Shown: positions 632 through 56,100 of the stretch, one piece after another
Numbering within the stretch: the stretch's first letter is position 1
Layout: each line of letters starts with the position of its first letter
Origin: Neoarius graeffei
Lineage: Eukaryota > Chordata > Actinopteri > Siluriformes > Ariidae
Reading direction: 5' to 3'
Assembly (NCBI RefSeq): GCF_027579695.1
Contig: NC_083572.1
Location: 13,662,915-13,726,914, forward strand
Length of the DNA stretch: 64,000 bases
Program-made: the position numbers and the translations under genes
The notes under the pieces: generated by a model
What the model was told of the DNA's origin: nothing
Database searches by the model: none
What the model saw: only the letters and a program-made list of their open reading frames with translations

Positions 632-633
632 TA

Positions 634-1905: not shown

Positions 1906-1907
1906 TG

Positions 1908-2245: not shown

Positions 2246-2538
2246 CTATTAGAATGTAAATTTAAAAAAAAAAAGGATTAAAGCCTTTTAAGGGAGTTCA
2301 CACACTGGTCAATGTGTAAAAACCAACACTATAGCAGTTTTACAGCATTTGCTGAAAACCTCGTTGTAGAATCTGAGCTAGTAGTGACTGTGATAGGTTT
2401 GTGTTATTGTGTCATAAAACATATGAGCCAATCATGTTCCCGGTATGCAAATGCAAACTATAGAAAATCATATAGTGGGATCATGTAGGTTGGTTCCAGT
2501 GTTAAACTGATAAATTTAACTTTCATGAAACCTTCAGG

Positions 2539-2908
2539 GGGCGGCATGGTGGTGTAGTGGTTTGCACTGTCGCCTCACAGCAAGAAGGTCCTGGGTTCGA
2601 GCCCAGCAGCCAATGAGGGCCTTTCTGTGCGGAGTTTGCATGTTCTCCTCGTGTCCGTATGGGTTTTCTCCGGGTGCTCCGGTTTCCCCCACAGTCCAAA
2701 GACATGCAGGTTAGGTTAACTGGTGACTCTAAATTGACCGTAGGTGTGAGTGTGAATGGTTGTTTGTCTATGTGTCAGCCCTGCGATAACCTGGCAACTT
2801 GTCCCAGGTGTACCCCGCCTCTCGCCCATAGTCAGCTGGGATAGGCTCCAGCTTGCCTGCGACCCTGTAGGACAGGATAAGCGGCTACAGATAATGGATA
2901 GATGGATG
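2539..2908 (+). mobile_element. tRNA-derived SINE, plus orientation, with 12-bp TSD
   Basis: A full-length SINE begins GGCGGCATGGTGGTGTAG and ends with a GGATAGATGGATG tail. It is flanked by the direct repeat GAAACCTTCAGG at 2527-2538 and 2909-2920. The duplication shows retrotransposition by a LINE-type target-primed mechanism. Confidence 0.95.
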
Positions 2909-3433
2909 GAAACCTTCAGGTCAAACTACTGTATTTCTTGGATATAGGAAAGGAACTAGTTGAAGGTGTGCTAATAAAGCACATGGTGTCTTTTACCATT
3001 TAACCACACGATGGCGCCACTTACCCACTCGCTCACTCTGTAACTTCAACAAGTGATACGTCTTTTTTTGTTTGTTTTTGGGGGGTTTTTTCCAAGTTTT
3101 TTATTAAATATCCAGATAAAAAAATTATATCATACTAGGGCATGAATTAAAGTATCCTAGATTTGTTTTAAAAAAAAAGCCTAGAAACTGAAAAAAGATA
3201 CTCCTCAGAAAAAACTGCGTTTGGTGCAGCTGGGAAATTTTTATTCCAGCACTTTCTGCGTCTCTTTGAAGGAAAAATTACCCTTCCTGGAGGAAAAAAA
3301 AATCTGTTTTTACTGAAAGGAAACGACATAAAAGTATTCACCGATTACAACTTTTACAGTTATACAGTTCAGAATTAAAATGTGCGGTTTGGAGAGCTTT
3401 CAGCGACATCTACAGTCTACATGCGTAACTACA

Positions 3434-3641
3434 CGGATTGCCAGATTGGTTTTATTTTAAACATAATTTATTGAGAAATGTAATGAAAAGAATAACTTTA
3501 AATATAATATATCTATGTAGATTTATATATTATTAGCTTCTGTACTTGTTACAAATCAGTTTGGCTCTTGTATCGATTTGGAAAGGTGTTTTAAAGCGAG
3601 ATTGGCTTACAAAACTATTACAACCAATCTGGCAACCCTGA
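3434..3641. mobile_element. Short TIR element (MITE-like, about 210 bp)
   Basis: Inverted ends CGGATTGCCAGATTGGTTTT (about 3434) and ACCAATCTGGCAACCCTG (3623-3641) face each other around an AT-rich core without coding capacity. The target duplication is unclear, so the family is undetermined; a hAT-type MITE is possible. Confidence 0.5.
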
Positions 3642-3649
3642 TTATAATA

Positions 3650-3759
3650 GCCCCAGCGGCGGTCCTCAAGATTCAGTGAGAGAACAGAAATGGAGCAGCA
3701 CTAATTAGATGAAGGTCCAAGGACTTGGGAAGATGGTGAACACGTGAGAAAAAAAGCAG
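3650..3759 (+). other. Possible 5' non-coding exon of lrrc8e (tentative)
   Basis: A short GC-richer patch runs from CCCCAGCGGCGGTCC to a good donor, AAAGCAG|GTGAGG (exon end 3759). LRRC8-family genes usually have an untranslated first exon several kilobases before the ATG exon. Nothing else supports it, and an adjacent MITE makes chance likely. RNA data would decide. Confidence 0.2.
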
Positions 3760-4202
3760 GTGAGGATTGTTATGCTTATTTAAATATCATCTAATTACAT
3801 TAAAAGTGTCGTTTAATTTGCAGAGTCGTTTAGATTTGTCTATGAGGCTGTGAAGAAACACTTTGTATTGCACTTAAATGGGGTTATGGTGGTATTTTTG
3901 TGACTTAAACCTGTTCTGGTAGTGTTCATGTGACTAATTTTAAAATTCTTTATTCCATGGAGTAAACTTTCACATTTCTGCATCACTTACTTAAAGTGGC
4001 CGTATGTAAGTTTTTTTTAATTATTATTTTAAAGTGGCGGTATGTAAGGCTTCATTTTAACCATTATTGAAACAATTCTGCAAAATATACAAGTCCTGGG
4101 CTGCTGTAAACCCTGGAAAGGTATTTCAGAGTAAGTCAGAGCTGTTGGGTTGGATTTGGCAAGAACTTTTAGACACACACCAGTTACCTCATTATTATTT
4201 TG

Positions 4203-12312: not shown

Positions 12313-14592
12313 CTGACACAGGAAAAGATCTCCTGTCTCCCTGATTGCTTCGCTGGAGACTTAGATGAAAGCATGGATTGCAGCTACCTCCAAAAACCCA
12401 GAGAGAGCAAGAGCCTATGGGAGCATGCCATCACCAAGAACATCACCCCAAACATTGTAGAGGTGTTTGGCCGAAAGAACAACCTGGACATTCACCAGTA
12501 CATCTTCATAAACAGTTTCTGCTATGAAAGGGCAGTGCACTGGTATGGCAAGTACTTCCCCTACCTGGTGGTCATCCATACTATGATCTTTATGGTAGCC
12601 AGCAGTTTCTGGTTCAAATTCCCTGGGACGTCGTCCAAGATCGAGCTGTTTGTGTCAATCCTGGGGAAGTGCTTTGACTCCCCCTGGACCACTCGAGCAA
12701 TTAGTGAGGTATCTGAGGAGAGAGAAGACATGGTCACGTGGAAGAAAAATTGCACAGCAAAAGCATCGGCGGTGGAAAGTCCTGATGAGGAGGACAAATC
12801 TGCTGCCTTTATTCGTTCTACGTCGGTTGTGTCTGACCAGGAGAAGGAGCCTGAGCATGCCACGTCTGTCCTGGACAAAAAAGAAGGCGAGCAGGCCAAG
12901 GCTCTGTTTGAGAAGGTGAGAAAATTTCAGACACATGTAGAAGAGGCAGACCTCCTCTACCTTATGTATGTTCTCCAGACCTCACTCAAGGTGCTAAAAT
13001 TTGCCATCATCACCATTTATAGTGTTTTCCTTGTACCAAATATTGAGATTGTAGTGACTTGCAGAGTCCCACCTGACCTGACTGGTTTTGGTTTGTTCTG
13101 CTGTAATAACAACAAAGCACACCTCTTCTCAAAACTAGCCTACTGTTACATTGGGTTTGTTGGTGTGTATGGAATACTATGCATCTATTCTCTCTACTGG
13201 CTCTTCCATCGGCCACTGAAAGCATACTCCTTCGAGCATGTACGTCTGGAGACAGGGATCAACGACATCCCTGACGTTAAAAATGACTTTGCATTCCTCT
13301 TGCACCTCAGCGATCAGTACGACCCTCTCTACTCTAAACGCTTTGCTGTTTTTCTCTCTGAAGTGAGTGAGAGCAGGTTGAGTCAGGTTAACCTCAATCA
13401 CGAGTGGCCCATCAAGAAACTCCGCACACGTCTCTCAAGGAACACCAGTGACCGCTTAGAACTGCACTTGTTCATGTTGCCAGGCTTACCCAGCACTGTG
13501 TTCGATGTGCCAGAAGTGGAATCTCTGAAGCTGGAACAGATCAATAATGTGACTATTCCTGGCACGGTGACCCAACTTGCAGTTTTACAGGAAATCTCCC
13601 TCATTCACTGCCCTGCCAGACTTCACCTAGAAGCCCTCACTTACCTACGAGAGAACCTGAAAGTCCTCCTCCTCACCTTCAGCAACCCAGAGCAGGTCCC
13701 CTTGTGGATGTACACTTTAACAAATTTGGAAGAGCTCCACCTGAGTGGGCCACTCACCAATGAGGTCCATCGTGGCACCACCTTAGACACCTTGCGGGAG
13801 CTCAAGAACCTTCGTGTGTTGACCTTGCGTGGTAAACTTGCCAAGATCCCTTCCAGTGTGGTGGATGTAGGTGGCCAGCTGCTAAGATTATGTGTGCACA
13901 ACGAGGGCAGCAGGCTGCATGCCTTCAGTAGTCTGAAGAAGCTTGCAAACTTGGCCATGCTGGAGCTGATTGGTTGCGAACTGGAGCGCCTCCCCAGCGC
14001 TATCTTCAGCCTCACCAATCTGCAACAGCTGGATCTGAAGGAGAACAGGCTTACCACTGTAGAGGAAATCCTTAGCCTGCAACACTGCCGCCGACTGAGC
14101 ACGCTCAGACTATGGCACAACTCTATCCGCTCCATCCCCGAGCACATCAACAAATTGCGCTCGCTTGAGACACTCGACTTGAGCTGGAACAAGATTCATA
14201 GACTGTCATTGCACCTTTGTTACTGTACCAAGCTTCGGCACCTGGATCTGTCCCACAATCAACTCACCTCATTGCCCCCTGAAATTGGTATCCTCCAGAG
14301 TCTGTGGCACCTTTCTGCTGCTTACAACTCACTAGAAGTGCTCCCAGAGGAGCTGTTCTCCTGTAAGAGGTTGAGAACTCTTGAGCTGGGGAATAACAGA
14401 ATTTCCTTTTTGTCTCCAAGGGTTGGGAACTTGGCCCACTTGGTGTGTCTGGAACTAAAGGGTAACAGGCTGGAGTCTTTGCCTATTGAGATAGGTGACT
14501 GCAACCTATTGAAGTTGACTGGGCTCATCGTAGAGGAGAGTCTGATTGATATCTTGCCTACTTACATAAAAGATAGTATGAAGGAGAGGTGA
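12313..14592 (+). CDS. lrrc8e: Volume-regulated anion channel subunit LRRC8E, coding exon 2 (residues 48-806)
   Basis: This exon starts at acceptor TTTTGATAG|CTGACACAG in phase 0 and ends at TGA 14590-14592. With exon 1 it gives 806 residues; human LRRC8E has about 796. LRRC8E joins LRRC8A in plasma-membrane hexamers that release chloride and osmolytes on swelling. Visible parts: extracellular loop starting [13 protein letters not shown]2 about 128-148 ([14 protein letters not shown]), a cytoplasmic loop with the conserved [21 protein letters not shown]3 about 273-293, TM4 about 324-345, then [13 protein letters not shown] and some 15 leucine-rich repeats to the C-terminus. LRRC8E rather than LRRC8C is indicated by [19 protein letters not shown] and [14 protein letters not shown]. 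The frame is open throughout. Confidence 0.95.
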
Positions 14593-21619: not shown

Positions 21620-21991
21620 CTAGGATTGGAAAGCCAGGGAGGATTCCAGCTGCCGTTTCAACAGCTCCACCAAGTCCGGCGTGCACGAGGCCTTGGCGAT
21701 GTCCAGCGCCGTGTCCCCTCGCGTGTCCTGGTGGCCGAGGTTCGAACGCGGTGCCAGGAACTCCACCACGTCTCTGTAGCCCTCTCGGATGGCAATGTGG
21801 ATGGGCAGAGCACCAGACTGATCGGGAATGTTGACCGAGGCACCGTAGTCAACCAGGACACACAGCGTGTCCAAAAAGCCTGTCCGGGCTGCGTCGTGGG
21901 CCGGTGTGATCCCGAAGCGGTCCTGGATGTTCGGGTCAGCACCGTTCTCCAAAAGCAGGCAAGCAACGTTGGGGTTACCCATCATCATTAC
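21620..21991 (-). CDS. cdkn2d: INK4-type CDK4/6 inhibitor p19 (CDKN2D), exon 2 (residues 48-170)
   Basis: This exon begins at acceptor CTGCAG|GTAATGATG in phase 0 and ends at TAG 21620-21622. It encodes [20 protein letters not shown] and three further ankyrin repeats: [36 protein letters not shown] and [13 protein letters not shown]4 proteins bind CDK4 and CDK6, blocking cyclin D activation and holding cells in G1. The five-repeat length (170 residues; human CDKN2D 166), the phrase [17 protein letters not shown] across the junction, and adjacency to ap1m2 favour CDKN2D over CDKN2C or CDKN2A/B. No disabling change is visible. Confidence 0.92.
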
Positions 21992-22257
21992 CTGCAGAGA
22001 CGACAGTACCAAGTCTTTAAATGTCCGTTAAATTAAAAACATCATTTTAAAAATACTCAATTCCTCTTGAAGTATAGACCACACCATTATTTTTCTACAT
22101 CATCATGCCCTGTCATGTTCGGATATAAAACTATATCGATCAGTATTCGGGTCAAATCTATAGGATATGGTGTATTATATTGCTAGTAATATGACAATGT
22201 AAACCTTAGACTTGTACTGGGACTCAGGTTCATGTCGACAAGTAACTCGCCAGATCT

Positions 22258-22639: not shown

Positions 22640-23636
22640 CGCATTTAAAATGGTAGGTGAACATTCCCAGTTCGGATATTTTCGTTCTTCTTAAGAATTA
22701 AAGGAATACTTCCAAGCCATTTTATTAGTATCTTGGATATACTGAACAATTTTTCTATAGACTTCTTGTTGTATTTTTAGACGTTCAATTCAGCAGGGGG
22801 AAAAAAAAAAACAAAAAACACACCACATTATAGTTCCTTACAAGCTAATTACTATTAATAAGCCCCTAGAGTCAACTTTACATTTCAAATTCAGTAACAG
22901 CAGCTGATGCAACCCTCCCATGCTTCACAATGCGCGTCTGTGTCACATACAATAAAAGACGGTCATTGTCATGGCATTTAAGATACAGATCTTTGACATT
23001 TCAATTGGACCAAAAATAACCTCGTGACAACCGTACATATAACGATCGAATACATGTCCGTTCTCTGTTGATATACAGTCATAAATGCGCTAATAATAAA
23101 AGCAAAAAAAAAAAAAGTTCACCGTCTGGCCAGGTAGGACTGCTGTGTGATGAATGTTTATAATAAACTCATAAGTCTTACATTTACCCTGAGGCTTTGT
23201 CCTCATTCCTGAAGATCTACTGACACGCATAGTAAGCTTCCAGCACAACTGCCTCTGCAACCTCAGATGCCAGTTGAAGGCCCTGATAAACTGGATCAGG
23301 TGTGACAAACAAAGCTGGATTCCACGCGGTTAGGGTTAGGCAACTGTGCTCACGTACAGCCATTTAACATAAAGCCATCACAGTAAACATTTACAGGCGG
23401 ATCTTTTATACGTTCAGAAAAATTCAAACAAATATCCGTTCTGTATATCGACATATGGTATTTCGTGTAATGGTATACCATAATATTATACATATTGCAC
23501 CGAGGATCATCACTTTTTATAAAAAAGTAGTTATAGTGATTTATGGACTAAGAGAGATTTTATTTCTGGGAAATTCAACATCACAGCAAATATTAGTTTT
23601 GCAGGCTATAAATTGGCAGCTCATACGTAATGGTAT
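22640..23636. other. cdkn2d intron, nothing recognised
   Basis: AT-rich intronic sequence with A-runs and no supportable feature. Confidence 0.45.
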
Positions 23637-23637
23637 A

Positions 23638-25239
23638 CAACCCCGATTCCAAAAAAGTTGGGACAAGGTACAAATTGTAAATAAAAACGGAATGCAATGA
23701 TGTGGAAGTTTCAAAATTCCATATTTTATTCAGAATAGAACATAGATGACATATCAAAATGTTTAAACTGAGAAAATGTATCATTTAAAGAGAAAAATTA
23801 GGTGATTTTAAATTTCATGACAACAACACATCTCAAAAAAGTTTGGACAAGGCCATGTTTACCACTGTGAGACATCCCCTTTTCTCTTTACAACAGTCTG
23901 TAAACGTCTGGGGACTGAGGAGACAAGTTGCTCAAGTTTAGGGATAGGAATGTTAACCCGTTCTTGTCTAATGTAGGATTCTAGTTGCTCAACTGTCTTA
24001 GGTCTTTTTTGTCGTATCTTCCATTTTATGATGCGCCAAATGTTTTCTATGGGTGAAAGATCTGGACTGCAGGCTGGCCAGTTCAGTACCCGGACCCTTC
24101 TTCTACGTAGCCATGATGCTGTAATTGATGCAGTATGTGGTTTGGCATTGTCATGTTGGAAAACGCAAGGTCTTCCCTGAAAGAGACGTCGTCTGGATGG
24201 GAGCATATGTTGCTCTATAACCTGGATATACCTTTCAGCATTGATGGTGTCTTTCCAGATGTGTAAGCTGCCCATGCCACACGCACTAATGCAACCCCAT
24301 ACCATCAGAGATGCAGGCTTCTGAACTGAGCACTGATAACAACTTGGGTCGTCCTTCTCCTCTTTAGTCCGAATGACACGGCGTCCCTGATTTCCATAAA
24401 GAACTTCAAATTTTGATTCGTCTGACCACAGAACAGTTTTCCGCTTTGCCACAGTCCATTTTAAATGAGCCTTGGCCCAGAGAAGACGTCTGCGCTTCTA
24501 GATCATGTTTAGATATGGCTTCTTCTTTGAACTATAGAGTTTTAGCTGGCATCGGCAGATGGCACGGTGAATTGTGTTCACAGATAATGTTCTCTGGAAA
24601 TATTCCTGAGCCCATTTTGTGATTTCCAATACAGAAGCATGCCTGTATGTGATGCAGTGCCGTCTAAGGGCCCGAAGATCACGGGCACCCAGTATGGTTT
24701 TCCTTGACCCTTACGCACAGAGATTCTTCCAATTTTCTCTGAATCTTTTGATGATATTATGCACTGTAGATGATGGTATGTTCAAACTCTTTGCAATTTT
24801 ACACTGTCGAACTCCTTTCTGATATTGCTCCACTATTTGTCAGCGCAGAATTAGGGGGATTGGTGATCCTCTTCCCATCTTTACTTCTGAGAGCCGCTGC
24901 CACTCCAAGATGCTCTTTTTATACCCAGTCATGTTAATGACCTATTGCCAATTGACCTAATGAGTTGCAATTTGGTCCTCCAGCTGTTCCTTTTTTGTAC
25001 CTTTAACTTTTCCAGCCTCTTATTGCCCCTGTCCCAACTTTTTTGAGATGTGTTGCTGTCATGAAGTTTCAAATGAGCCAATATTTGGCATGAAATTTCA
25101 AAATGTCTCACTTTCGACATTTGATATGTTGTCTATGTTCTATTGTGAATACAATATCAGTTTTGAGATTTGTAAATTATTGCATTCCGTTTTTATTTAC
25201 AATTTGTACTTTGTCCCAACTTTTTTGGAATCGGGGTTG
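23638..25239 (-). mobile_element. Tc1-like element, young subfamily, full length
   Basis: The 1.6-kb element has matching ends CAACCCCGATTCCAAAAAAG and its inverse, flanked by TA at 23636-23637 and 25240-25241. It is closely similar to the copies at 33047-34627 and 52766-54356. The inverted repeats extend inward through GTAAATAAAAACGGAATGCA. Confidence 0.95.
23859..24932 (-). pseudogene. Tc1-like transposase, disrupted in its N-terminal half
   Basis: The C-terminal 197 residues (23859-24452) are open and carry the first catalytic aspartate ([10 protein letters not shown]), the second ([11 protein letters not shown]) and the glutamate ([12 protein letters not shown]), ending GDVSQW. Upstream, the DNA-binding domain (MTGYKKS..., [14 protein letters not shown]) is interrupted by stops and small deletions compared with the intact copy at 33206. 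This copy is therefore inactive. Confidence 0.88.
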
Positions 25240-25334
25240 TAGAATATTCTACTGTACATATTGTCCTGTGCTTCATTAATTGTCAGAATTACCATATATA
25301 TGTAAAATATTATACATTGTACTTTAAAGGAATA

Positions 25335-32275: not shown

Positions 32276-33046
32276 TGTCCCAAATGAAAGACCAGTTTCT
32301 GAGACGGACCCCATATGTAGATACTTAATTTATCTAGAAGTTCTCTCTATTTTTCTATTCTCTGTTTATCTAATTTAATCTCAGTAATGAGACAGAAGAT
32401 ATAGGGTGAGCAAAAAGAACACATTACGTTATCATTACTTAATACTGCAGAGTGAAGACAGGCACGACGAAAGGATTTCCCATCAAACCCAAGGAATATA
32501 GATTTATAGTTAGCTCTATTCCCAGCGGTTTGAAAGAGCTAATGAAAGGCTGTAGTAATCTACACGAGGTTATTAACCTTCAACAGACACTTTATTTAGA
32601 TGGAATCCAGTTTATTATTAGTTATAAATGTACAAATAAAACATTAAAAGATGCCTTTATAGCAAAAGAAAAATAACTCCTCATGGAAAGACTTATTGGA
32701 ACTCCCTCTTCAAAGATATAAACTGGAGTAGAGCTTGGCTTGTCCCATTTAAATTTTTAATTTCTAACAAAATCAGAGAATTACATCTTAAACTATTACA
32801 TAACATCTATCCTACTAATGCATACATCTCCAGATTTTCCGATATCGATGACAGCTGTACCTTTTGTAAAAAAAAAAAATCATCCATTTATTTTATAAAT
32901 CCCCATTTTGTATCACCTTTTGGAAAGATTTGGGAAATTTTCTTTTTGCTAAAACTACAGTCAAGTATCACTTTGATGAGAAAATCATTATTTTTGGCAC
33001 TTTCTCGTACAATAATAAATTTAACATAATTAATCTCTTTATATTA

Positions 33047-34627
33047 CAACCCCGATTCCAAAAAAGTTGAGACAAAGAACATATTGTAAATAAAAACGGA
33101 ATGCAATGATGTGGACGTTTCAAAATTCCATATTTTATTCAGAATAGAACATAGATGACATATCAAATGTTTAAACTGAGAACATGTATCATTTAAAGAG
33201 AAAAATTAGGTGATTTTAAATTTCATGACAACAACACATCTCAAAAACTTGGGACAAGGCCATGTTTGCCACTGTGAGACATCCCCTTTTCTCTTTACAA
33301 CAGTCTGTAAACGTCTGGGGACTGAGGAGACAAGTTGCTCAAGTTTAGGGATAGGAATGTTAACCCGTTCTTGTCTAATGTAGGATTCTAGTTGCTCAAC
33401 TGCCTTAGGTCTTTTTTGTCCTATCTTCCGTTTTATGATGTGCCAAATGTTTTCTATGGGTGAAAGATCTGGACTGCAGGCTGGCCAGTTCAGTACCCGG
33501 ACCCTTCTTCTACGCAGCCATGATGTTGTAATTGATGCAGTATGTGGTTTGGCATTGTCATGTTGAAAAATGCAAGGTCTTCCCTGAAAGAGACGTCGTC
33601 TGGATGGGAGCATATGTTGCTCTAGAACCTGGATATACCTTTCAGCATTGATGGTGTCTTTCCAGATGTGTAAGCTGCCCATGCCACACGCACTAATGCA
33701 ACCCCATACCATCAGAGATGCAGGCTTCTGAACTGAGCGCCGATAACAACTCGGGTCGTCCTTCTCCTCTTTAGTCCGAATGACACGGCGTCCCTGATTT
33801 CCATAAAGAACTTCACATTTTGATTCATCTGACCACAGAACAGTTTTCCACTTTGCCACAGTCCATTTTAAATGAGCCTTGGCCCAGAGAAGACGTCTGC
33901 ACTTCTGGATCGTGTTTAGATACGGCTTCTTCTTTGAACTATAGAGTTTTAGCTGGCAACGGCGGATGGCACGGTGAATTGTGTTCACAGATAATGTTCT
34001 CTGGAAATATTCCTGAGCCCATTTTGTGATTTCCAATACAGAAGCATGCCTGTATGTGATGCAGTGCCGTCTAAGGGCCCGAAGATCACGGGCATCCAGT
34101 ATGGTTTTCCGGCCTTGACCCTTCCGTGCAGAGATTCTTCCAGATTCTCTGAATCTTTTGATGATATTATGCACTGTAGATGATGATCTGTTCAAACTCT
34201 TTGCAATTTTACACTGTTGAACTCCTTTCTGATATTGCTCCACTATTTGTCGGCACAGAATTAGGGGGATTGGTGATCCTCTTCCCATCTTTACTTCTGA
34301 GAGCCGCTGCCACTCCAAGATGCTCTTTTTATACCCAGTCATGTTAATGACCTATTGCCAATTGACCTAATGAGTTGCAGTTTGGTCCCCCAGCTGTACC
34401 TTTAACTTTTCCAGCCTCTTATTGGCCCTGTCCCAACTTTGAGATGTGTTGGTCATGAAATTTCAAATGAGCCAATATTTGGCATGAAATTTCAAAATGT
34501 CTCACTTTCGACATGTTGTCCATGTTCTATTGTGAATACAATATCAGTTTTTGAGATTTGTAAATGATTGCATTCCGTTTTTATTTACAATTTGTACTTT
34601 GTCCCAACTTTTTTGGAATCGGGGTTG
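33047..34627 (-). mobile_element. Tc1-like element, young subfamily, apparently complete
   Basis: Long inverted ends (CAACCCCGATTCCAAAAAAG) are flanked by TA at 33045-33046 and 34628-34629. It is 1581 bp, inserted in the L1-like LINE. It carries the only uninterrupted full-length transposase frame in the window. Confidence 0.95.
33206..34342 (-). CDS. Tc1-like transposase, open full-length frame
   Basis: The frame is 378 residues. The likely start is the internal Met at 34288 (MGRGSPIPLIL), because the upstream ATG (34342, MTGYKKS) overlaps a TATAAAAAG box that probably drives the gene. From the internal Met to GDVSQW is 340 residues, the normal Tc1 length. Visible: two helix-turn-helix regions ([26 protein letters not shown] just after), an [10 protein letters not shown] linker, and a DDE triad in [21 protein letters not shown] and [11 protein letters not shown]. 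The usual stop after GDVSQW is changed (TAA to CAA, judged against the other copies), adding 20 residues. Function is cut-and-paste transposition in the nucleus; activity is untested. Confidence 0.9.
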   Translation of the reverse strand: MTGYKKSILEWQRLSEVKMGRGSPIPLILCRQIVEQYQKGVQQCKIAKSLNRSSSTVHNIIKRFRESGRISARKGQGRKTILDARDLRALRRHCITYRHASVLEITKWAQEYFQRTLSVNTIHRAIRRCQLKLYSSKKKPYLNTIQKCRRLLWAKAHLKWTVAKWKTVLWSDESKCEVLYGNQGRRVIRTKEEKDDPSCYRRSVQKPASLMVWGCISACGMGSLHIWKDTINAERYIQVLEQHMLPSRRRLFQGRPCIFQHDNAKPHTASITTSWLRRRRVRVLNWPACSPDLSPIENIWHIIKRKIGQKRPKAVEQLESYIRQERVNIPIPKLEQLVSSVPRRLQTVVKRKGDVSQWQTWPCPKFLRCVVVMKFKIT

Positions 34628-35130
34628 TACTAGGCAACCCCCTCATTCCCATTATTTTTAATTGAATTAAAAATGTATTTTGAGTCCATCACATATCGAA
34701 TCCAACAAAAAGTGCTCATCAGCTATTCAATTTTATTCAAGTGAAATTGTCTGTCATTTCAATTTGCCCTGTTTTTATACATCTTCTCTTTCTTTAGACT
34801 TATTTCTATTTATTATTTTATCCACTTATCACCCCTATTTTTTTTCTATATTATTTTTTTATTTATGGGTTGTTTTACAATCAGGGTACGCAAGCTAAAA
34901 ATCACATTTAACACTTATTATCTTCAATATCAAAAGGCTTGACTAAATAAACTTGGTTGTTTATTGTAGCCCTGTGATAGCTCTATTTACCATGCAAAAA
35001 AAAAAAAAAAAAATTTGTGATAACGTTATTTTTGGTGAATGTATGGCAATGTGTGTCATATTTAGCAAAATTATTCGTGCCATTTAGAAAAAGTGCTTTT
35101 TTGACCACAGGTAGCTCCAAAAGGGATGCA
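34628..35130 (+). other. L1 remainder and undefined repeat sequence
   Basis: The first 250-300 bp after the Tc1 insertion continue the L1-like sequence (TTTTGAGTCCATCACATATC ...). From about 34875 the origin is unclear; A-runs and AT-rich words are present but no open gene. Confidence 0.45.
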
Positions 35131-35143
35131 CTTAAATCATTCT

Positions 35144-35515
35144 CATTCATCTCATCTCATTATCTCTAGCCACTTTATCCTGTTCTACAGGGTCGCAGGC
35201 AAGCTGGAGCCTATCCCAGCTGACTACGGGCGAAAGGCGGGGTACACCCTGGACAAGTCGCCAGGTCATCACAGGGCTGACACAGACAACCATTCACACT
35301 CACATTCACACCTACGGTCAATTTAGAGTCACCAGTTAACCTAACCTGCATGTCTTTGGACTGTGGGGGAAACCGGAGCACCCGGAGGAAACCCACGCAG
35401 ACACGGGGAGAACATGCAAACTCCGCACAGAAAGGCCCTCGCCGGCCACGGGGCTCGAACCCGGACCTTCTTGCTGTGAGGCGACAGCGCTAACCACTAC
35501 ACCACCGTGCCGCCC
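35144..35515 (-). mobile_element. tRNA-derived SINE, minus orientation, 13-bp TSD
   Basis: Flanked by CTTAAATCATTCT at 35131-35143 and 35516-35528. Full length, lacking 6 bp in the ACACAGACAACC region relative to other copies. Confidence 0.95.
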
Positions 35516-35528
35516 CTTAAATCATTCT

Positions 35529-35904
35529 TTATACCATAAAACAAATATTTGGTTCCATATCATTGGAAACAAAGTTTTAATGTTGAATGCCAGTAAGTTT
35601 TCAGACTGTTTTGATCAAATTAGTATGTAATTGTGTCAAAAAAAAAAAGTCCTCTCCGAGACAGCTAATTTTTCAATATAAAATAACATATCTAAAATGA
35701 TTATTTTCATCCTAAAATGTGGTCAAGATAATGGGACATAAATATTAGAGACAACTAACACAAAGCTTACAGCCTTATATTTAAAAGCACTATGGAAGTA
35801 ATGGATTCTGAATTGTCAAAAAAAAAAAAAAAGTCCTCTCTGAGAATCACTTCATTTGTTTCTCCCATCTTATAGCAGATTACACAAAACTACCATACAC
35901 TTAA
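35529..35904. other. Unassigned sequence within the L1 interval
   Basis: AT-rich, with two similar phrases AAAAAAGTCCTCTCCGAG and AAAAAAGTCCTCTCTGAG about 185 bp apart. Probably a TE remnant; no gene. Confidence 0.4.
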
Positions 35905-36029
35905 AGTGCCATTCCACCATTGGATGTATTCTTTGGCATAAAATACAATATATTTTATGACAACATGACTAGACAGAGAAATCTTTTAGCTTCAAAATGA
36001 TATATCAAACATATTTTTTTGACAACGAC

Positions 36030-36409
36030 AAGTATATTAATTTTGCGACCAAAATCATCTACCCTTTTAATTTCCGCGCGGTAGTGAAACGTGATGTCAT
36101 CGGCAGGTTCCCCTTCTTGTGTACCACGTCACGTGGCACAGATTATCAGCAATGGCGGATAGAACGCGATTTCCACTTGTCGATTGCTGTGCCGATATTC
36201 ACCATCGACCGTCTCCTTTGGGCATCACTTGCTATTTTCCTTCGCTTCTTTTCCGAAGCCGACAATCGCGTTCTATCCGCCATTGCTGATGGTCTGTACC
36301 ACGTCACACGTGACGTGGTACACAAGAAGGGGAACCTGCCGATGACATCACGTTTCACTACCGCGTGGAAATTAAAAGGGTAGGTGACTTTGGTCGCAAA
36401 ATTAATATA
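36030..36409. repeat. Near-perfect hairpin core
   Basis: About 130-bp arms (36030-36165 and 36285-36409) are inverted copies with few mismatches. They include GGTTCCCCTTCTTGTGTACC and its inverse, and CACGTCACGTG near the centre. Such an arm pair could form a cruciform. Confidence 0.85.
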
Positions 36410-36823
36410 GGGGAGAGCGGGGTAAGATGAGCCACTTTTTACATGTGTCATCATAACTACATGTTAAAGCCATTTTTGCTTCCAGTCTACACACCATACC
36501 AAATTTCAAAGTGTACTGTTACTATCTGAGCAAAAAATAATTGATAAGCTCTTATGGTTAGAGTGATATTACCTCTTGAAAAAAAAAAAGTCAAGTGGCT
36601 CAACTTACCCCATGCACGGGGTAAGATGAGCCACTGTGTGGGGTAAATTGAGCCAACACAAAACATGTTAGGTTAACAAAGTAAACAACTTTTATTATTA
36701 GAAATGCAATCAATGAATCAAGTCAATCAAGTGGGGGACAGGGCCGTTGCATAGAGAAGGGGAGATGAAGAGAGAGGTGATAGAACGAGATGGGATAGGG
36801 AGGGATAGATAGATGGATAGAGA

Positions 36824-36830
36824 GAGATGC

Positions 36831-36907
<77 letters not shown>
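36824..36907. repeat. (GATA)n microsatellite
   Basis: About 20 consecutive GATA units, preceded by impure GATA/GAGA repeats from 36784. Spacing is 4 bp without unique spacers, so this is not a CRISPR array. Confidence 0.97.
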
Positions 36908-37050
36908 GGGATGGTTAGAGAGGGAATGAGAGATGTACTATATTATAGAAATTACTAAAACAGTAGAACAGTGCCAAAAAATCTTATTTCTTTCAGTAGG
37001 TTAAAACATTGCTAAAACATGCAGCAATCATTCCATCAATCATTCCATCA

Positions 37051-37377
37051 TTATTCAATGTTCCAAGCGTTCAAATGGCAAGGGAACACCATTTGCCTCT
37101 CCCTCCGTGCTGTCCCCCCAACAGTAAAGGGGTGGGGCAATTTTTTCACAATATCCTGTCTTGACAGGACAGCCTCATCTTTCTCTTTGAAGACAAAGGT
37201 TGGCTTTCTTACAGAGCCATGGCATGACCGGCTTCTTTTGAGAAATCTTGCCTCTATTTCGAAGACATCCAATTTGATTATCTGGCCAATGAAGAAATGC
37301 ACTTTCTTCTTCCCCGTGAATTTTGCCACAACATAATCCCCCACATCTAACAACTGGTCTTCCTCATCTGATGTCAT
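37051..37377 (-). pseudogene. C-terminal tail of a pogo-like transposase
   Basis: The frame reads MTSDEEDQLLDVGDYVVAKF, then KKKVHFFIGQIIKLDVFEIE, ARFLKRS, and ends near TVGGTARRERQMVFPCHLNA. I recognise this as the small tail domain after the DDE domain in some animal pogo-type transposases (VGDYV..KF..KK...F.GQI pattern, from memory). The catalytic domain is missing. The open frame starts only 2 bp from the MITE inserted at 37379, so the upstream part was cut off or deleted. Confidence 0.6.
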
Positions 37378-37378
37378 A

Positions 37379-38363
37379 TGAGTGATTCCACGCTTATGGG
37401 TACTGAAATGGGGACATGAACTTATTCACCTAAAACCATTTCTTTTTTTACCATCAGGTCACAAAACATGTAATCTTTAATGAATGATATGTTAAAAGAT
37501 AACTTTAATTTTCTGAGATGTAATAAAAACATATTTATATGCCAAAGTCAAGCCTATGAGTTCCAAAATGATGTCGGTTACATTACTTCTGTTACGATTG
37601 TCCATCTCGCGCCTGTTACAAATTAATTACAATCTAGCTATATACCATGTTAATCTTATTGAAAGAATGTGTATGTTTATTCTACTACACATGTTTATTA
37701 ATTATATTTGCTAAAACATCACCTTCCTATGTTTCAAAAAGTAATTCTACATTGTTAAAATTGAGAATATATATGTCCACAACACTTCTGTTACGTTCTG
37801 ACTTTGGCATATAAATATGTTTTTATTACATCTCAGAAAATTAAAGTTATCTTTTAACATATCATTCATTAAAGATTACATGTTTTGTGACCGGGCGGCA
37901 CGGTGGTGTAGTGGTTAGCGCTGTCGCCTCACAGCAAGAAGGTCCTGGGTTCGAGCCCCGGGGCCGGCGAGGGCCTTTCTGTGTGGAGTTTGCATGTTCT
38001 CCCCGTGTCCGCGTGGGTTTCCTCCGGGTGCTCCGGTTTCCCCCACAGTCCAAAGACATGCAGGTTAGGTTAACTGGTGACTCTAAATTGACCGTAGGTG
38101 TGAATGTGAATGGTTGTCTGTGTCTATGTGTCAGCCCTGTGATGACCTGGCGACTTGTCCAGGGTGTACCCCCGCCTTTCACCCGTAGTCAGCTGGGATA
38201 GGCTCCAGCTTGCCTGCGACCCTGTAGAAGGATAAAGCGGCTAGAGATAATGAGATGAGATGTTTTGTGACCTGATGGTAAAAAAAAAGAAATGGTTTTA
38301 GGTGAATTTTTAAAAAATAAGTTCATGTCCCCATTTCAGTACCCAGAAGCGTGGAATCACTCA
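37379..38363. mobile_element. TA-flanked foldback MITE carrying a SINE
   Basis: The ends TGAGTGATTCCACGCTT and the inverse are flanked by TA at 37377-37378 and 38364-38365. The arms are about 190 bp (37379-37560 and 37790-38363 excluding the SINE), including CTGAAATGGGGACATGAAC and AATGAATGATATGTTAAAAG. The net length without the SINE is about 605 bp. No coding capacity. Confidence 0.88.
37893..38260 (+). mobile_element. tRNA-derived SINE at the deepest nesting level, 12-bp TSD
   Basis: Flanked by TGTTTTGTGACC at 37881-37892 and 38261-38272. It sits in the right arm of the foldback MITE, and the matching left-arm site (near 37455) is uninterrupted. Confidence 0.96.
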
Positions 38364-38714
38364 TATATATACACACATGTTGTTGTCATATATGACCAGT
38401 AAATGTGAAAACTTAAGTGTCATCCATATTGGGTAAGCTCAGCCACCAATGGGGTAAGTTGAGCCAGTGGCTCAACTTGCCCCACATCTAATGGCTCATC
38501 TTACCCCGTGGCCACCATTTTGTAGAAAAATGCTAATAAAGGGGATTAGGCTAATCAAAATATTTTTATTAGCATTCATATCATAGCTTAGAAAGCCACA
38601 AACTTAACCCTAATGTGTCTAAATATTATTCTACTTTTGTCTTCTCTAAATCATCTTCACTGTGGACAAACATGGAATTGACTTAGAAAGCACAAAAACA
38701 CATTTTTATAAATA

Positions 38715-39263
38715 CCGTATTTTCTGGACTATAAGCCACTACTTTTTTCCTAGGTTTTGAACCATGCGGCTTATACAAAGGTGCGGCTATTCTGTGGATT
38801 TTTCTTCCACCGCTAGGGGCGCTCTAACCGGAAGTAGAATCAAAAATAAGATAGACGAAAAATCAATGCAAAGAAGAATTAGCAGATCTTTAGCAGATAG
38901 AACACGCATGACAAATTACTAACTGGTAATTATTTTCAAATCCAGCGAAGATGATTAAAGTGACTTGTGGTTTCAAACACAGGAGAAATGAAGGTAAATA
39001 AATACCGGTTATTTTCTCTTGGTTCTGTTCCGTTTTAATCAGCAAAGTTGCTGCCGTGTTAAAAGGCACTGTTCGGAAAGAATCTGTTTAGGTACATACA
39101 TGTACATTTACAGTACAAAATCGTTCTGTACATGCAGTAAATATCTAATTTTTCAACATAGATATCTGCGGCTTATAGCCCGGTGCGGCTTGTATATCTT
39201 TTTTTTTTTAATAGAGCGGATGCGGCTTATATACAGGTGCGCTCTATAGTCCAGAAAATACGG
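38715..39263. mobile_element. TA-flanked TIR element (CCGTATTTTCTGGACTATA ends)
   Basis: The ends ACCGTATTTTCTGGACTATA and the inverse lie at 38715 and 39263, flanked by TA. Subterminal repeats of TGCGGCTTATA occur near both ends. It is 549 bp, non-coding and inserted in the pogo-like element. The superfamily was not assigned. Confidence 0.85.
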
Positions 39264-39759
39264 TATCTCCCTCACCTAGTTTGACATGTGGTGCTCCTCT
39301 CCACAAGTGTAAGTAAATGGTCCCGCCCCTCCTTTGAATGTGGTCACATTTGTTTACTGTTTCTTAGAAACAGGGGGTGGCTCATCTTACCCCGCTCTCC
39401 CCTACTTGTCAAAAAATTATATGTTTGATATATCATTTTGAAGCTAAAAAAAGATTTCTCTGTCTAGTCATGTTGTCATAAAATATATTGTATTTTATGC
39501 CAAAAAAAATGCATCCAATGGTGGAATGGCACTTTAAAAACTGGTACAACAAGAACCAGTTTGAATCTATTTGAATTTTGGACCCCTGTGACACAAACTT
39601 TGTAAAAAAAAAAACAACCCTTATATGCCTTTGTCATGTCTTGGAATGTCTGTCACTTGTTCTTACTGTTTTGTTGATGTATTGTCCAATCTTAAATTTA
39701 AAAAAAAAAAAAAAAAGACAGGCACGACGCGACTCCTAATCTTTATATATATCCAGAAA

Positions 39760-39825: not shown

Positions 39826-39966
39826 CTGTAAGGCAGTTTTGCCGAACTCGTTGCTGGTGTCGGGGTGAACCCGGTTCTCCTCCAGCAGCCTCCTCACCTC
39901 CGCCGTGTCTCCTCTCGCCGCCGCCGCAGTCAGACTCTTCCCCGCGTCGCTCTCACTCAGCACCAT
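39826..39966 (-). CDS. cdkn2d: INK4-type CDK4/6 inhibitor p19 (CDKN2D), exon 1 (residues 1-47)
   Basis: ATG at 39966 opens [20 protein letters not shown], then [16 protein letters not shown] and NEFGKTALQ, ending at CTTACAG|GTACCG, a phase-0 donor. This is the first ankyrin repeat of an INK4 protein and aligns with human CDKN2D (AAARGDVQEVRRLL, VHPD, FGKTALQ). A GTG two codons upstream is in frame but is not a likely start. The exon joins 21991, giving a 17834-bp intron filled with transposons. ap1m2 ends 1.2 kb upstream on the same strand. Confidence 0.92.
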
Positions 39967-50100: not shown

Positions 50101-53100
50101 TCCTCAGACCTGCCTGATCCATCCTGGTGCCCTGTGTCTGGCTGGAGTCTCATCGCATCGCTCCTGTGGAGGACGACCCCATATGGACAGTTGGAAGTCA
50201 CACTTGGAAGACGCTCTGGACACTTACTGTACAGTAATGCTTTTATGGCTGAGGACTACAGTTGACTTGATAACTTTAAGACTGCAGTTGTCGTGAACAG
50301 TTTTGCACTCAAGTTTCCATTAATGAAGAGTTACAACATCAACGAAACAGACTTCATGTTAAAACTGTTATAATCGCAGTGTCTGTTATCACCCAAATGA
50401 GGATGGGTTCCATTTTGAGTCCGGTTCCTCTCGAGGTTTCTTCCTCATGTCATCTGAGGAAGTTTTTCCTGGCCACTGTCACCACAGGCTTGCTCATTGG
50501 GGATAAGATTAGCTCAAGCCATTAAAATTCTGTACAGCTGCTTTGCGATAATGTCTATTGTTAAAAGCGCGATAAAAATAAACATGACTTGACAAAAGCG
50601 TTAATGCGCAAATCAGTGATCAGAAGCTTGTTTTTAACTTGCTTTATTGTCTTCCCGCTGCTCGTTTCTGTTTAAACGCTCTGTGATTTGGCGGTAAATC
50701 CAACTTTCGCTTCTGGAAAACTGATTCACTCTGAGTGATGTGTCGTTCAGGGAACGGATCGACTCTTTGATGAATTTTAAATTTAAAAAAAAAGTGAACA
50801 ATGATCTGCATATCCCCACACCTGGATGAGGGCAAGAACATCATCTTTAGTCCAGGTATCACTGCGATTGGCTTGGGAATCTCTTGACTGCATCATTTAA
50901 AGGTGGAGAAGTTTGACAAGGAAAAGCACTCGAGAAGAACTGACCACTGAATTTTTTTTTTTTTTATTGAAGCGGTCTTGTCCGGATGATAAATGACCCG
51001 GATGAATGCCATCGCGCACGCATAAGCCGTCCTACTTGCCACAGTTTGTGTTTAGACAGTAAGCGGGAACAAGATGTGCTCACTGGTGTCAAATTGTTCC
51101 AGAACAAATATTTCGACAGGCAATTGCGCTGGGGCGACGTGTTCCAGAAACAACTTGTTCTGATGCGAGTGCCTGTGTAAAAGCAGCTAAAGAAGCAGCC
51201 TAACAGCTAATTGACCAATATGCTGAATTGTCTTGCCTATGTTTCTTAAAAACATTTAAAACTAATCCATATAACACTGACGCAAGGCCTTTAAGAAGCA
51301 CTGGCTGGAACACTTTTGTTTAATGTAAATCATAGTTTGGGGTGTTGATAGAAACAGAACGGGTCATGAGCACGTACTCCTGTAGGATCTTGCTATCTGT
51401 AGTCTGAGGGAAGCCGAAATCCATGAGCTCATCCAGCAACTCGTACACCACAACAAAGTTATCCTGAATGCTCTCTTCTTCCAGCTCTTTAAAGTACTCT
51501 GTGAACACCTGGACAGAGAACACACATAGTATATAAGCGAGTGTCTGGTTTAGCACTGGAGATCTGCATATGGTGGCTCGTATAAAGTGCAAAAAACACA
51601 CCAAGAAAAAAAAAAAAATGCAATAGCAGTAAGTCAAAAGGTCAGGTCTTTATCGAACACAGGCTTGTTGCTTGGACAGAACATCCTCCAGCTCTTTGTT
51701 TTCCTCCATCAACTCTCAGACTGAACCAATCAGCAACAAGCAATGTGATGTTGGATACGGACTATTTTGAGTACGTTATTACTGCTGCTGCATTTTCGTA
51801 TTTGTTGTGGTGTTTTTGTGATTTGCTGTTGTGTTTTCTGATCCGTTAACATGTTTTGCACTTACATTCCACCATATATCCATGTCTAATGTAGCTAACA
51901 AGTATTAATATCAAGTCATCAAGTCTAATCATATTTTGTTATGACGACAAAATGTTATAATTTCTAGCTTTCGGATACAATTCTGCCTTCAAATCAAATA
52001 CCAAACAATTAACTCTAGTTGTTTTGCATATCACTAATGAAAACAGGGAGTCAGATTATCCAAAATAGCTGCCTCTAGAACATTACAGCGTTCAGGTAAC
52101 AGAGTAAGGTTTTGTGTAATTTGTATTCATTGTACAGTCGTAAGCCCTGTGTCTGAAACCACTTCAGGAAGTCTGTGTACATTGATAAGCAACTCCGACA
52201 CACAAGAATCATCTCAAAGATATTCAAAGAGCACGCAGTCCATCCTCGGCTTGAGTATCAACCCCGCGGCAGAGTTGAATTCCAACAGTAACATCTTATT
52301 CAAATGTGCACATGCCGCTAAACTAAAGTTGACACGAGTCCAGATGGGATTAAACTTCTTTACTCCACTACAACGAATAAGGTGTGTAGTTTCTTACCTC
52401 CACCAGCTTGTACAGAAAAGAATACACCAGAGATGCATTGGAGTTCTTGTTGGTCGTAGCCACCACTGTACAGTGATCATGTTAAGTCTCAAACGCAATA
52501 TTAGTTGGTCTAATTTCTCCAAAGTTCACGATACTTCTAATTAATCTCAGTGCAGGAGCTTGTTTCGGAATTATTGTATTGAACTTGGACGCAAAAACGA
52601 GAAGATATTGGTTTTGTATTGGAGCTACGATGTTTAACTGGAGACTATACCCTCAGAAATAAAAAGGTAGTCAATGGGGTAGTACATGTTTTGTACTTGT
52701 GGCATATACAGTACCAGTATCAAAAGTTTGTACACCCCTACTCAGAGGTTTTTCTGTATTTTCTACAACCCCGATTCCAAAAAAGTTGGGACAAAGTACA
52801 AATTGTAAATAAAAATGGAATGCAGTGATGTGGAAGTTTCAAAACTCCATATTTTATTCAGAATAGAACATAGATGACATATCAAATGTTTAAACTGAGA
52901 AAATGTATCATTTAAAGAGAAAAATGAGGTGATTTTAAATTTCATGACAACAACACATCTCAAAAAAGTTGGGACAAGGCCATGTTTACCACTGTGAGAC
53001 ATCCCCTTTTCTCTTTACAACAGTCTGTAAACGTCTGGGGACTGAGGAGACAAGTTGCTCAAGTTTAGGGATAGGAATGTTAACCCATTCTTGTCTAATG

Positions 53101-56100
53101 TAGGATTCTAGTTGCTCAACTGTCTTAGGTCTTTATTGTCGTATCTTCCGTTTTATGATGCGCCAAATGTTTTCTATGGGTGAAAGATCTGGACTGCAGT
53201 ACCCGGACCCTTCTTCTACGCAGCCATGATGTTGTAATTGATGCAGTATGTGGTTTGGCATTGTCATGTTGGAAAATGCAAGGTCTTCCCTGAAAGAGAC
53301 GTCATCTGGATGGGAGCATATGTTGCTGTAGAACCTGGATATACCTTTCAGCATTGATGGTGTCTTTCCAGATGTGTAAGCTGCCCATGCCACACGCACT
53401 AATGCAACCCCATACCATCAGAGATGCAGGCTTCTGAACTGAGCGCTGATGATAACTTGGGTCGTCCTTCTCCTCTTTAGTCCAAATGACTCGGCGTCCC
53501 TGATTTCCATAAAGAACTTCAAATTTTGATTCGTCTGACCACAGAACAGTTTTCCACTTTGCCACAGTCCATTTTAAATGAGCCTTGGTCCAGAGAAGAC
53601 GTCTGCGCTTCTGGATCGTGTTTAGATACGGCTTCTTCTTTGAACTATAGAGTTTTAGCTGGCAACGGCGGATGGCACGGTGAATTGTGTTCACAGATAA
53701 TGTTCTCTGGAAATATTCCTGAGCCCATTTTGTGATTTCCAATACAGAAGCATGCCTGTATGTGATGCAGTGCCATCTAAGGGCCCGAAGATCACGGGCA
53801 CCCAGTATGGTTTTCCAGCCTTGACCCTTACGCACAGGGATTCTTCCAGATTCTCTGAATCTTTTGATGATATTATGCACTGTAGATGATGATATGTTCA
53901 AACTCTTTGCAATTTTACACTGTCGAACTCCTTTCTGATATTGCTCCACTATTTGTCGGCGCAGAATTAGGGGGATTGGTGGTCCTCTTCCCATCTTTAC
54001 TTCTGAGAGCCGCTGCCACTCCAAGATGCTCTTTTTATACCCAGTCATGTTAATGACCTATTGCCAATTGACCTAATGAGTTGCAATTTGGTCCTCCAGC
54101 TGTTCCTTTTTTGTACCTTGAACTTTTCCAGCCTCTTATTGCCCCTGTCCCACCTTTTTTGAGATGTGTTGCTGTCATGAAATTTCAAATGAGCCAATAT
54201 TTGGCATGAAATTTCAAAATGTCTCACTTTTGATATTTGATATGTTGTCCATGTTCTATTGTGAATACAATATCAGCTTTTGAGATTTGTAAATTATTGC
54301 ATTCCGTTTTTATTTACAATTTGTACTTTGTCCCAACTTTTTTGAAATCGGGGTTGTACATTGTGGTACAATACTAAAGACATCAAAACTATGAAATAAC
54401 ATATGGGTCATATATGGAATAATGTAGTAAACAAAAAAAAGGGTTTAAAAAAAATTAAAAAGCAAAATACGTTTCACATTTTCGATTCATCAAAGTAGCC
54501 AGCGTTTCCCTTGATGACGCTTTGTTCACTATTAGCATTATCTTAACCAGCTTCATGAGGTAGTCACCTGGAATGCTTTTCAATTAACAGTTCATTAGTG
54601 GACGAGTCTCTTGCCTTCTTAAATGTGTTTGAGATCAAACAGTAAATAATAAAACTAGATAGAGAGACTGTGACTAAAGTCACAGTAATTTGTGCTAGCT
54701 GACCTTTGTCAGTTGAAGGTCAAGGAAAAGTTGCGTCCTGCCGCCCTGAACGAAATAAAAAAGCTGAATGAAAAAGAAAAAAAAAATCATGAAAATTGAC
54801 AGAGTTATAAGTAATTGAAAAAAAAAAAGCCTGTTTCTCATGGATCATTCCGGTTCGGTGATCCAGATCAGCACCAAAAGTCATAGCAATGTAATTCAGC
54901 CCAGAGGTATTCATGTGAAATTTGGTGATGATTGGCTGAAAACTAAGGGAGAAATACCATCCTAAAAAAACGTTAGGAGAAGAAAGTAGAAAGATCCTGA
55001 GTGAGAATAACAATTTGCTAGCACAAATAAATAATAAAAATACAGTAAATAGCCCTATTCCTCCCCGTGACTGACATCTTGACACGGTGGGGAGGCTTGC
55101 GAGCCCCAGTGACCCTAAGAACTATGCTGGCTGGACCTTTGGGTCCTGGTAGGGTCACTCATGCCAGACAGGTCGAAGGATACGGGACAGACAGAGAGCA
55201 GTCACCCGGCCCTCCAGGTCAATCGGGGGTTGTACAGGGGGGCTAACAACCTTTTTACGTTTAAAAAAAAAACTACTTGTTATGGAAACAGCAACAGACC
55301 AATCTACATCTGTGCAAAATGGACTCTCTGGATCCCAGTACAGAGACAGTGACGCCAACGGGCATGCTGTCACCAGGAGGATCAGTATGACTGGCAGAGG
55401 TCAAAGCCAACAGGACGCCTCCGACACAAACTGGGTAGCCATTAGCGCAAAATCTACTACCCTCATAGAGGAAGCGCGGACATCCCAAGGCCACGTGGAG
55501 GAGGACTGTAGAGATGGAACTGAAAGAAATGGGTCACACCTGGGCCAGCATACAACGAGTGGCCAAAGATCGCCAGAGATGGAGTAGTCTAGTTGCTGCC
55601 CTACGCACCGCCGGGTGTAACAGGATTAAGTAAGTAAATAGCCCTATTCCACAACTGCAGTAATCCATATTATGTCAAGAACCGCTCAGCTAAGTAAAGA
55701 GAAACGACATCCATCATTACTTTAAGACATGAAGTGTCTTTTAATGAAAAAAAATAAAGAAAAACCACTGAATTAGGAGGTGTGTCCAAACACTTGACTG
55801 CTATTGTGTCGATCACCTGGGAATGTGCAACTTTAATTAGCTTTTTGGGTAAAATTTTAAGAGGTCCATGAGTGATCCTTCAGGTCCAATTATTTACCGG
55901 AAATTATTTTTAAAGGGGAATTGGGCATTTCACAATCCTTTACAGACTAAACAGATGTGCTATTTTATAATGATGAGTCCTACATCAGTGCTTCACCATG
56001 CTGAAACACTACCAAACAGTGCCCTGGCATGAATTTTTAACACTATTATTATCCACTCCTGCATTCAGACAGACCAGACAATTACAATAGAAGTTTCTGT

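What the first reader, a model, noticed from the sequence alone, without database searches (positions are those of the whole stretch)
32457..39729. Five-level nested transposon stack inside the cdkn2d intron
Flanking duplications give an insertion order. An L1-like LINE (TSD GACAGGCACGACG) contains a TTAA foldback element (TTAA twice), which contains a pogo-like element (TA twice), which contains a TA-flanked foldback MITE, which contains a SINE (TGTTTTGTGACC twice). The same LINE also received a Tc1 and another SINE, and the pogo-like element a second TIR element. Every layer closes cleanly, so this is a readable relative chronology of seven or more transposition events in one intron.
Basis: seen in the sequence. 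Interest (0 to 1): 0.8.

Follow-up and report, generated by a model that had tools for sequence, protein, structure and literature searches.

The report
Six-deep nested transposons in catfish intron
A stretch of an intron in a cell-cycle gene of a fish holds nine mobile elements that jumped into one another up to six layers deep; this is ordinary for repeat-rich genomes but unusually easy to read, and one layer belongs to a family that favours runs of TATATA.

Summary
The window's own genome (2.34 Gb, 38 contigs; size and number match the published catfish Neoarius graeffei assembly, inferred) supplied uninterrupted relatives at all eight inner junctions. Corrected main line: L1 LINE > element X (TTAT duplication, missed) > TTAA foldback > TA-flanked "pogo-like" element > TA foldback MITE > SINE. 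Side insertions: a Tc1 in the L1, a SINE in X (not in the LINE), a second TIR element in the pogo-like element. That is nine insertions, six deep. Closure is not clean everywhere: L1 lacks about 35 bp beside the Tc1, X lacks about 46 bp beside the foldback, X's closure leaves 2 extra bases, and a (TA)n run hides the MITE's duplication. Divergence agrees broadly (outer two layers about 2%, inner two about 0.4%) but does not resolve single steps. A random-insertion model expects about 300-4,000 insertions at depth six or more per genome at 50-70% transposon content (none in the 40% run), so the stack is not exceptional. Side finding: the TA foldback family has (TA)n at 2,879 of 5,330 matched ends (54%), against 31 of 708 (4.4%) for the pogo-like control; similar plant MITEs are known.

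The parts
32457..39729 (+). Layer 1: 5'-truncated L1 LINE with 13-bp target duplication; body about 32470-33044, 34630-34862 and 39625-39716, poly(A) at the right end
   Evidence: duplication and poly(A) read directly; healed body aligns with L092, L093, L094 and L096 into their A-rich 3' ends; DNA upstream of the related copy L093, held as L097, has reverse transcriptase sequence
33045..34629 (-). Side insertion in L1: Tc1 element 33047-34627, TA on both sides, 381-codon open frame on the minus strand
   Evidence: ends read directly; DDE_3 and helix-turn-helix matches; 6 of 6 fetched L1 copies uninterrupted at the target; about 35 bp of L1 missing to its right
34863..39624 (.).
   Evidence: X copies and contiguous LINE copies L010/L011; 11 of 15 X copies with both ends found have equal 4-bp flanks; empty site in 4 of 6 L1 copies
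35131..35528 (-). Side insertion in X: SINE 35144-35515 with 13-bp duplication CTTAAATCATTCT
   Evidence: 22 of 28 X loci contiguous across the site
35901..39537 (.). Layer 3: TTAA-flanked foldback element, about 640 bp without its insert; lies in X
   Evidence: healed arms match at 257 of 265 aligned positions, with 20 gap positions; 5 of 7 genomic copies uninterrupted end to end; TTAA on both sides in 7 of 7; X empty site
36408..39404 (.). Layer 4: TA-flanked element with ends GGGGAGAGCGGGGTAAGATGAGCC..
   Evidence: equal 2-bp flanks in 27 of 27 copies with both ends found, TA in 26; 708 matches of its left-end pattern in the genome
37377..38365 (.). Layer 5: TA foldback MITE 37379-38363, about 600 bp without its SINE, inserted in the (TA)n run inside the layer-4 element
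   Evidence: healed arms match at 174 of 175 aligned positions, with 13 gap positions; 22 hits of its core including itself, 93-100% identical; empty site with a TA run; 5,330 matches of its end pattern
37880..38272 (+). Layer 6: SINE 37893-38259 with 13-bp duplication ATGTTTTGTGACC
   Evidence: 21 of 21 MITE loci contiguous at this place in at least one arm
38713..39265 (.). Side insertion in the layer-4 element: second TIR element 38715-39263, TA on both sides
39826..39966 (-). cdkn2d coding exon 1; the stack ends about 96 bp into the intron that follows
   Evidence: p19-INK4d chains lead the matches; splice donor and start codon read by eye
21623..22027 (-). open frame that holds cdkn2d exon 2 (exact acceptor site not fixed)
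   Evidence: matches p19-INK4d residues 44-160 at 5.5e-38

Best explanation
The stretch is a fossil record of nine separate transposition events in intron 1 of cdkn2d. A 5'-truncated L1 was copied in by target-primed reverse transcription; later a Tc1 and a cut-and-paste element X (4-bp duplication) entered the L1; a SINE and a TTAA-specific foldback entered X; a TA-specific element entered one arm of that foldback; a second TA element and a TA foldback MITE entered that element, the MITE in a (TA)n run that the element itself carries; a SINE then entered the MITE. Shown here: the sequence of each junction and the existence of uninterrupted relatives for all eight inner junctions. Inferred: the transposition mechanism of each family (from its ends and duplications) and that insertion was random apart from local target preferences. 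The order is partial: side branches (Tc1 against X, SINE against foldback in X, second TIR element against MITE) are not ordered by nesting.
For: Target duplications at the layers; healed foldback and MITE arms become complementary over their length; empty sites for the eight inner junctions in the same genome; copies of four of the DNA-element families elsewhere carry equal flanks of the expected size (pogo-like 27 of 27, foldback 7 of 7, X 11 of 15, MITE 11 of 17); differences from family consensus are higher in the outer two layers than in the inner two: L1 16 of 884, X 17 of 722, foldback 8 of 629, pogo-like 17 of 1295, MITE 2 of 610, SINE 2 of 367.
Against: Two small deletions beside insertions and 2 extra bases at the X closure. 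The divergence order is not strict: X is nominally above L1, foldback and pogo-like are equal, the inner SINE is nominally above the MITE, and of 15 uncorrected pairwise tests on differences from consensus only 4 have p < 0.05. Counting only changes unique to this copy, the order is not monotone (L1 8 of 884, X 3 of 722, foldback 7 of 629, pogo-like 7 of 1295, MITE 1 of 610, SINE 0 of 367) and 2 of 15 tests have p < 0.05. The consensus sequences rest mostly on the copies most like the window's own. Four of 15 X copies and 6 of 17 MITE copies do not show equal flanks. The outermost empty site is untested.
Confidence: 0.95

Rival explanations
1. Some layers moved together: for example X already carried the foldback, or the foldback already carried the pogo-like element, when it arrived here, so the stack records family history rather than successive insertions at this locus.
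For: None found directly; foldback copies with a SINE inside exist (L003, L005), so hosts with passengers are around and could in principle move.
Against: 21 of 28 X loci are contiguous at the foldback site; 5 of 7 foldback copies are uninterrupted and the other 2 carry a SINE instead; 28 of 29 layer-4 loci lack the second TIR element; 21 of 21 MITE loci lack this SINE in at least one arm.
Confidence: 0.04
2. The layout is an assembly artefact that joins repeats from different places.
For: The region is almost wholly repeats, several from families with near-identical copies.
Against: The layers close with matching duplications, among them a 13-bp one at the outer edge; the published assembly of the same size and scaffold number was made with HiFi reads, optical maps and Hi-C (passages).
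Confidence: 0.01
3. The (TA)n runs beside the TA foldback MITE grew after insertion from the duplicated TA, so the family has no preference for TA runs.
For: Short TA duplications might seed microsatellites (recalled, from no call).
Against: In the window's host element the run exists without the MITE: 17 of 29 copies hold a plain TA or TA-rich run at that site. Another TA-duplicating family rarely has such runs: 31 of 708 ends against 2,879 of 5,330.
Confidence: 0.2

Closest known systems
Nested transposons and transposition-in-transposition dating (TinT, PMC3014933, abstract read; interruption analysis, PMC2517846, start of abstract in a listing)
   Same: Element-in-element insertions give a relative order; the TinT abstract speaks of thousands in present-day genomes.
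   Different: Here a single locus is read to six levels with DNA transposons, a LINE and SINEs; no new principle.
MuTAnT and Ac-mMITE, plant elements that favour (TA)n microsatellites (PMC4486113 and PMC8449440, abstracts read)
   Same: Short non-autonomous elements, many copies flanked by (TA)n.
   Different: The abstracts tie the plant families to Mutator (9/10-bp duplications for pineapple copies outside TA runs); the fish family shares only TA at the three sites outside TA runs that I read (L075, L076, L077), and no autonomous partner was looked for.
Foldback or MITE elements with TTAA target (Kolobok or piggyBac type, recalled)
   Same: TTAA on both sides, long inverted arms; two internal open frames without Pfam match.
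   Different: No transposase was tied to this family, so the superfamily is open.

Membership tests
L1 LINE | L1-type reverse transcriptase | tested here: met
   In DNA upstream of a related copy (L097), not in the truncated window copy: RVT_1 at 1.9e-8 and 4.2e-7; for the second piece the five matches are four LINE-1 ORF2 sequences and one RNA-directed DNA polymerase; for the first piece R2 chains score above LINE-1 ORF2
L1 LINE | poly(A) end, target duplication, 5' truncation | tested here: met
   a related copy continues upstream (L097)
Tc1/mariner | TA duplication, inverted ends and DDE transposase | tested here: met
pogo superfamily (layer 4) | TA duplication | tested here: met
   TA in 26 of 27 copies, CT in one
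pogo superfamily (layer 4) | pogo-type DDE transposase (own or of a partner) | tested here: inconclusive
   the 124-aa open frame has no Pfam match; a 107-aa part of it has 150 scored genomic hits of 787 candidates, in open frames of at most 240 aa
TTAA superfamilies (Kolobok, piggyBac) | TTAA duplication | tested here: met
   window and 7 of 7 copies
TTAA superfamilies (Kolobok, piggyBac) | related transposase | not tested
   no partner element sought; two internal open frames without Pfam match
(TA)n-targeting MITE (layer 5) | copies flanked by (TA)n well above control | tested here: met
   2,879 of 5,330 ends against 31 of 708 for the pogo-like control; in fetched loci 24 of 39 against 1 of 29; empty site holds the run
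Mutator-type (TA)n MITE (MuTAnT, Ac-mMITE) | 9/10-bp duplication at sites outside TA runs | tested here: not met
   only TA is shared at L075, L076 and L077; three sites only
tRNA-type SINE (layer 6 and the SINE in X) | tRNA-like promoter | tested here: inconclusive
   no tRNA called in the window, no Rfam match; the SINE label rests on length, copy number and 13-bp duplications

The most novel reading that the evidence does not exclude
The catfish genome holds an abundant and, in the copies sampled, young MITE family that really targets (TA)n microsatellites, and a second transposon family that carries such a run inside itself serves as a movable landing site for it. That would be an animal counterpart, with a different duplication and so probably a different transposase, of the plant (TA)n-targeting MITEs.
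Probability: 0.5. Interest if true: 0.45.

Novelty: new member of a known kind. Interest (0 to 1): 0.3.

Why it matters
As a stack it is a teaching-quality example with a built-in order of nine insertions, and if the species is Neoarius graeffei, relatives are sequenced: a study reports short-read assemblies of 66 species, among them N. graeffei and one outgroup (PMC11579386, passages), so each layer could be placed on a tree. The wider point is the TA foldback family, whose strong link to TA runs could test whether microsatellite targeting arose more than once.

Tried and rejected
Clock dating of single layers: rejected as too coarse (two sets of 15 uncorrected tests; an earlier run with slightly different cuts gave X 16 of 711, MITE 2 of 609 and otherwise the same counts). 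The Tc1 could not be dated: only 3 copies cover half of it and the sparse consensus mixes families (75 of 1,100 sites differ). The second TIR element has no consensus because its copies could not be fetched. 'The TA foldback has only 22 copies' was rejected: that search used its core only; a search with its arm found nothing, not even itself (the tool skips very common words, my reading of why); the end pattern gave 5,330 matches. The depth model uses guessed element lengths, one 40-Mb run per setting and a range of transposon contents, since this genome's own content was not measured; at 40% no insertion reached depth six. Pfam gave no family for the pogo-like, LINE and two foldback open frames.

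Paper searches were about (TA)n-targeting elements; their listings were capped (12 of 2,600, 10 of 112, 10 of 16 papers), and the ones I recognised as describing such targeting are in plants. This does not show that none is described in animals. Searches were about nesting, catfish repeats, the species and pogo elements.
Full report
What was checked. The window lies in a genome of 2,341,909,251 bases in 38 contigs, at C4:13662915-13726914. A paper reports the Neoarius graeffei assembly as 2.34 Gbp in 38 scaffolds (PMC11579386, passages and one section read); that this is the same assembly is my inference.

A missed layer. A search with the stretch between the TTAA foldback and the poly(A) end split in two: 39538 to about 39624 matched one repeat family, and about 39624 to 39698 the LINE end. 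Copies of the first (L012 and others) run on into window 34867-35900, while LINE copies L010 and L011 are contiguous from 34867 to 39624. So an element X with ends like GGGTTGTTTTACAATCAGGGTAC sits in the LINE and holds the TTAA foldback and one SINE. Eleven of 15 X copies with both ends found have equal 4-bp flanks, four do not; in the window both flanks are TTAT. Four of six further L1 copies show the empty site.

Empty sites. L1 at the Tc1 target: 6 of 6 fetched copies uninterrupted, of 41 places other than the window listed; at the X target 4 of 6, the other two being diverted by other sequence first. Two more distant LINE copies have SINE sequence near the Tc1 target instead (L010, L011). 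X: contiguous across the SINE site in 22 of 28 loci and across the foldback site in 21 of 28; the rest were not examined one by one. Foldback: 5 of 7 loci, of 39 places other than the window listed, align over the full 642-bp healed sequence; the other two carry SINEs within about 10 bp of the same place, with shifted duplications, so they look like separate hits. Layer 4: 28 of 29 loci show the empty site of the second TIR element, one could not be scored. At the MITE site 17 of 29 hold a plain TA or TA-rich run of 8-78 bases, 3 a run with SINE sequence in it, 8 a different internal sequence, 1 not scorable. MITE: 21 of 21 are contiguous at the SINE site in at least one arm.

Not quite clean. 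Beside the Tc1 the L1 lacks about 35 bp that its relatives have, between two AGG; left of the foldback X lacks about 46 bp that its relatives have. Either may predate or follow the insertion. After removal of X with one TTAT, two extra bases remain compared with the L1 copies.

Age signal. Differences from family consensus, window copy: L1 16 of 884, X 17 of 722, foldback 8 of 629, pogo-like 17 of 1295, MITE 2 of 610, SINE in X 3 of 368, innermost SINE 2 of 367 (consensus from 9, 25, 8, 29, 21, 47 and 47 copies). The outer two layers are older in bulk, but only L1 > MITE (p 0.0066), X > MITE (0.0012), X > innermost SINE (0.021) and pogo-like > MITE (0.031) stand out among 15 uncorrected tests. 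Changes unique to the copy do not fall steadily inward (8, 3, 7, 7, 1 and 0 from L1 to innermost SINE). So divergence is compatible with the nesting order and does not prove it; the order rests on the junctions.

How unusual. In a random-insertion model, one 40-Mb run per setting, insertions at depth six or more, scaled to 2.34 Gb, number 0, 292, 1,989 and 3,978 at transposon contents of 40, 50, 60 and 70% (smaller trial). Real content was not measured here. The stack is thus expected somewhere if content is about half or more. Its place in cdkn2d intron 1, ending about 96 bp from exon 1, is established by matches of exon 1 to p19-INK4d residues 1-46 and of the exon 2 open frame to residues 44-160; I made no test of any function.

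A family that likes TA runs. The MITE of layer 5 inserted in a (TA)n run inside layer 4. In fetched copies 12 of 21 have (TA)6 or more within 25 bp of an end, against 1 of 29 pogo-like, 0 of 7 foldback, 1 of 25 X and about 1% of 20,000 random positions in the loci. Genome-wide, the 42-base end pattern matches 5,330 times with up to 3 mismatches, and with ten more bases of TA run in front 2,879 times, that is 54%. The same test on the left end of the pogo-like family, which also duplicates TA, gives 31 of 708, 4.4%. The reversed-pattern controls gave 0 in all four searches. On loci in hand the same test gave 24 of 39 for the foldback, 1 of 29 for the pogo-like element and 0 of 5 for Tc1. Plant MITEs with this preference are known (PMC4486113, PMC8449440, abstracts read).

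Naming. L1: a related copy's upstream DNA holds reverse transcriptase that matches LINE-1 ORF2 among others. Tc1: 381-codon open frame with DDE_3 and helix-turn-helix matches. Pogo-like: TA duplication only; no transposase shown. X and the TTAA foldback: superfamily open. The SINE label rests on length, copy number and duplications; no tRNA or Rfam match was found.

Noticed in passing
window 33209-34351, minus strand: The Tc1 in the LINE keeps a 381-codon open frame, while two other copies in the window (23636-25241 and 52764-54359, about 95% alike) show shorter ones (212 and 251 codons the longest listed).
   Followed up: partly
L003 about 1985-2400 and L005 about 800-1235: Two foldback copies carry SINEs within about 10 bp of the place where the pogo-like element entered the window copy, with differently placed duplications: a possible local insertion hot spot.
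   Followed up: partly
L050, L055, L067: The (TA)n run inside the pogo-like family has also received SINE sequence in 3 of 29 copies, so the run takes more than one kind of element.
   Followed up: partly
L040, L047, L051, L052, L053, L062, L063, L065: A second form of the pogo-like element has other sequence (about 300 bp in L040) where the window form has the (TA)n run.
   Followed up: no
window 36831-36906: A GATA microsatellite inside the pogo-like element, left out of the divergence counts.
   Followed up: no
window 12313-14589, plus strand: A 759-codon open frame with leucine-rich repeats that looks like an LRRC8-type channel gene (recalled, not searched).
   Followed up: no
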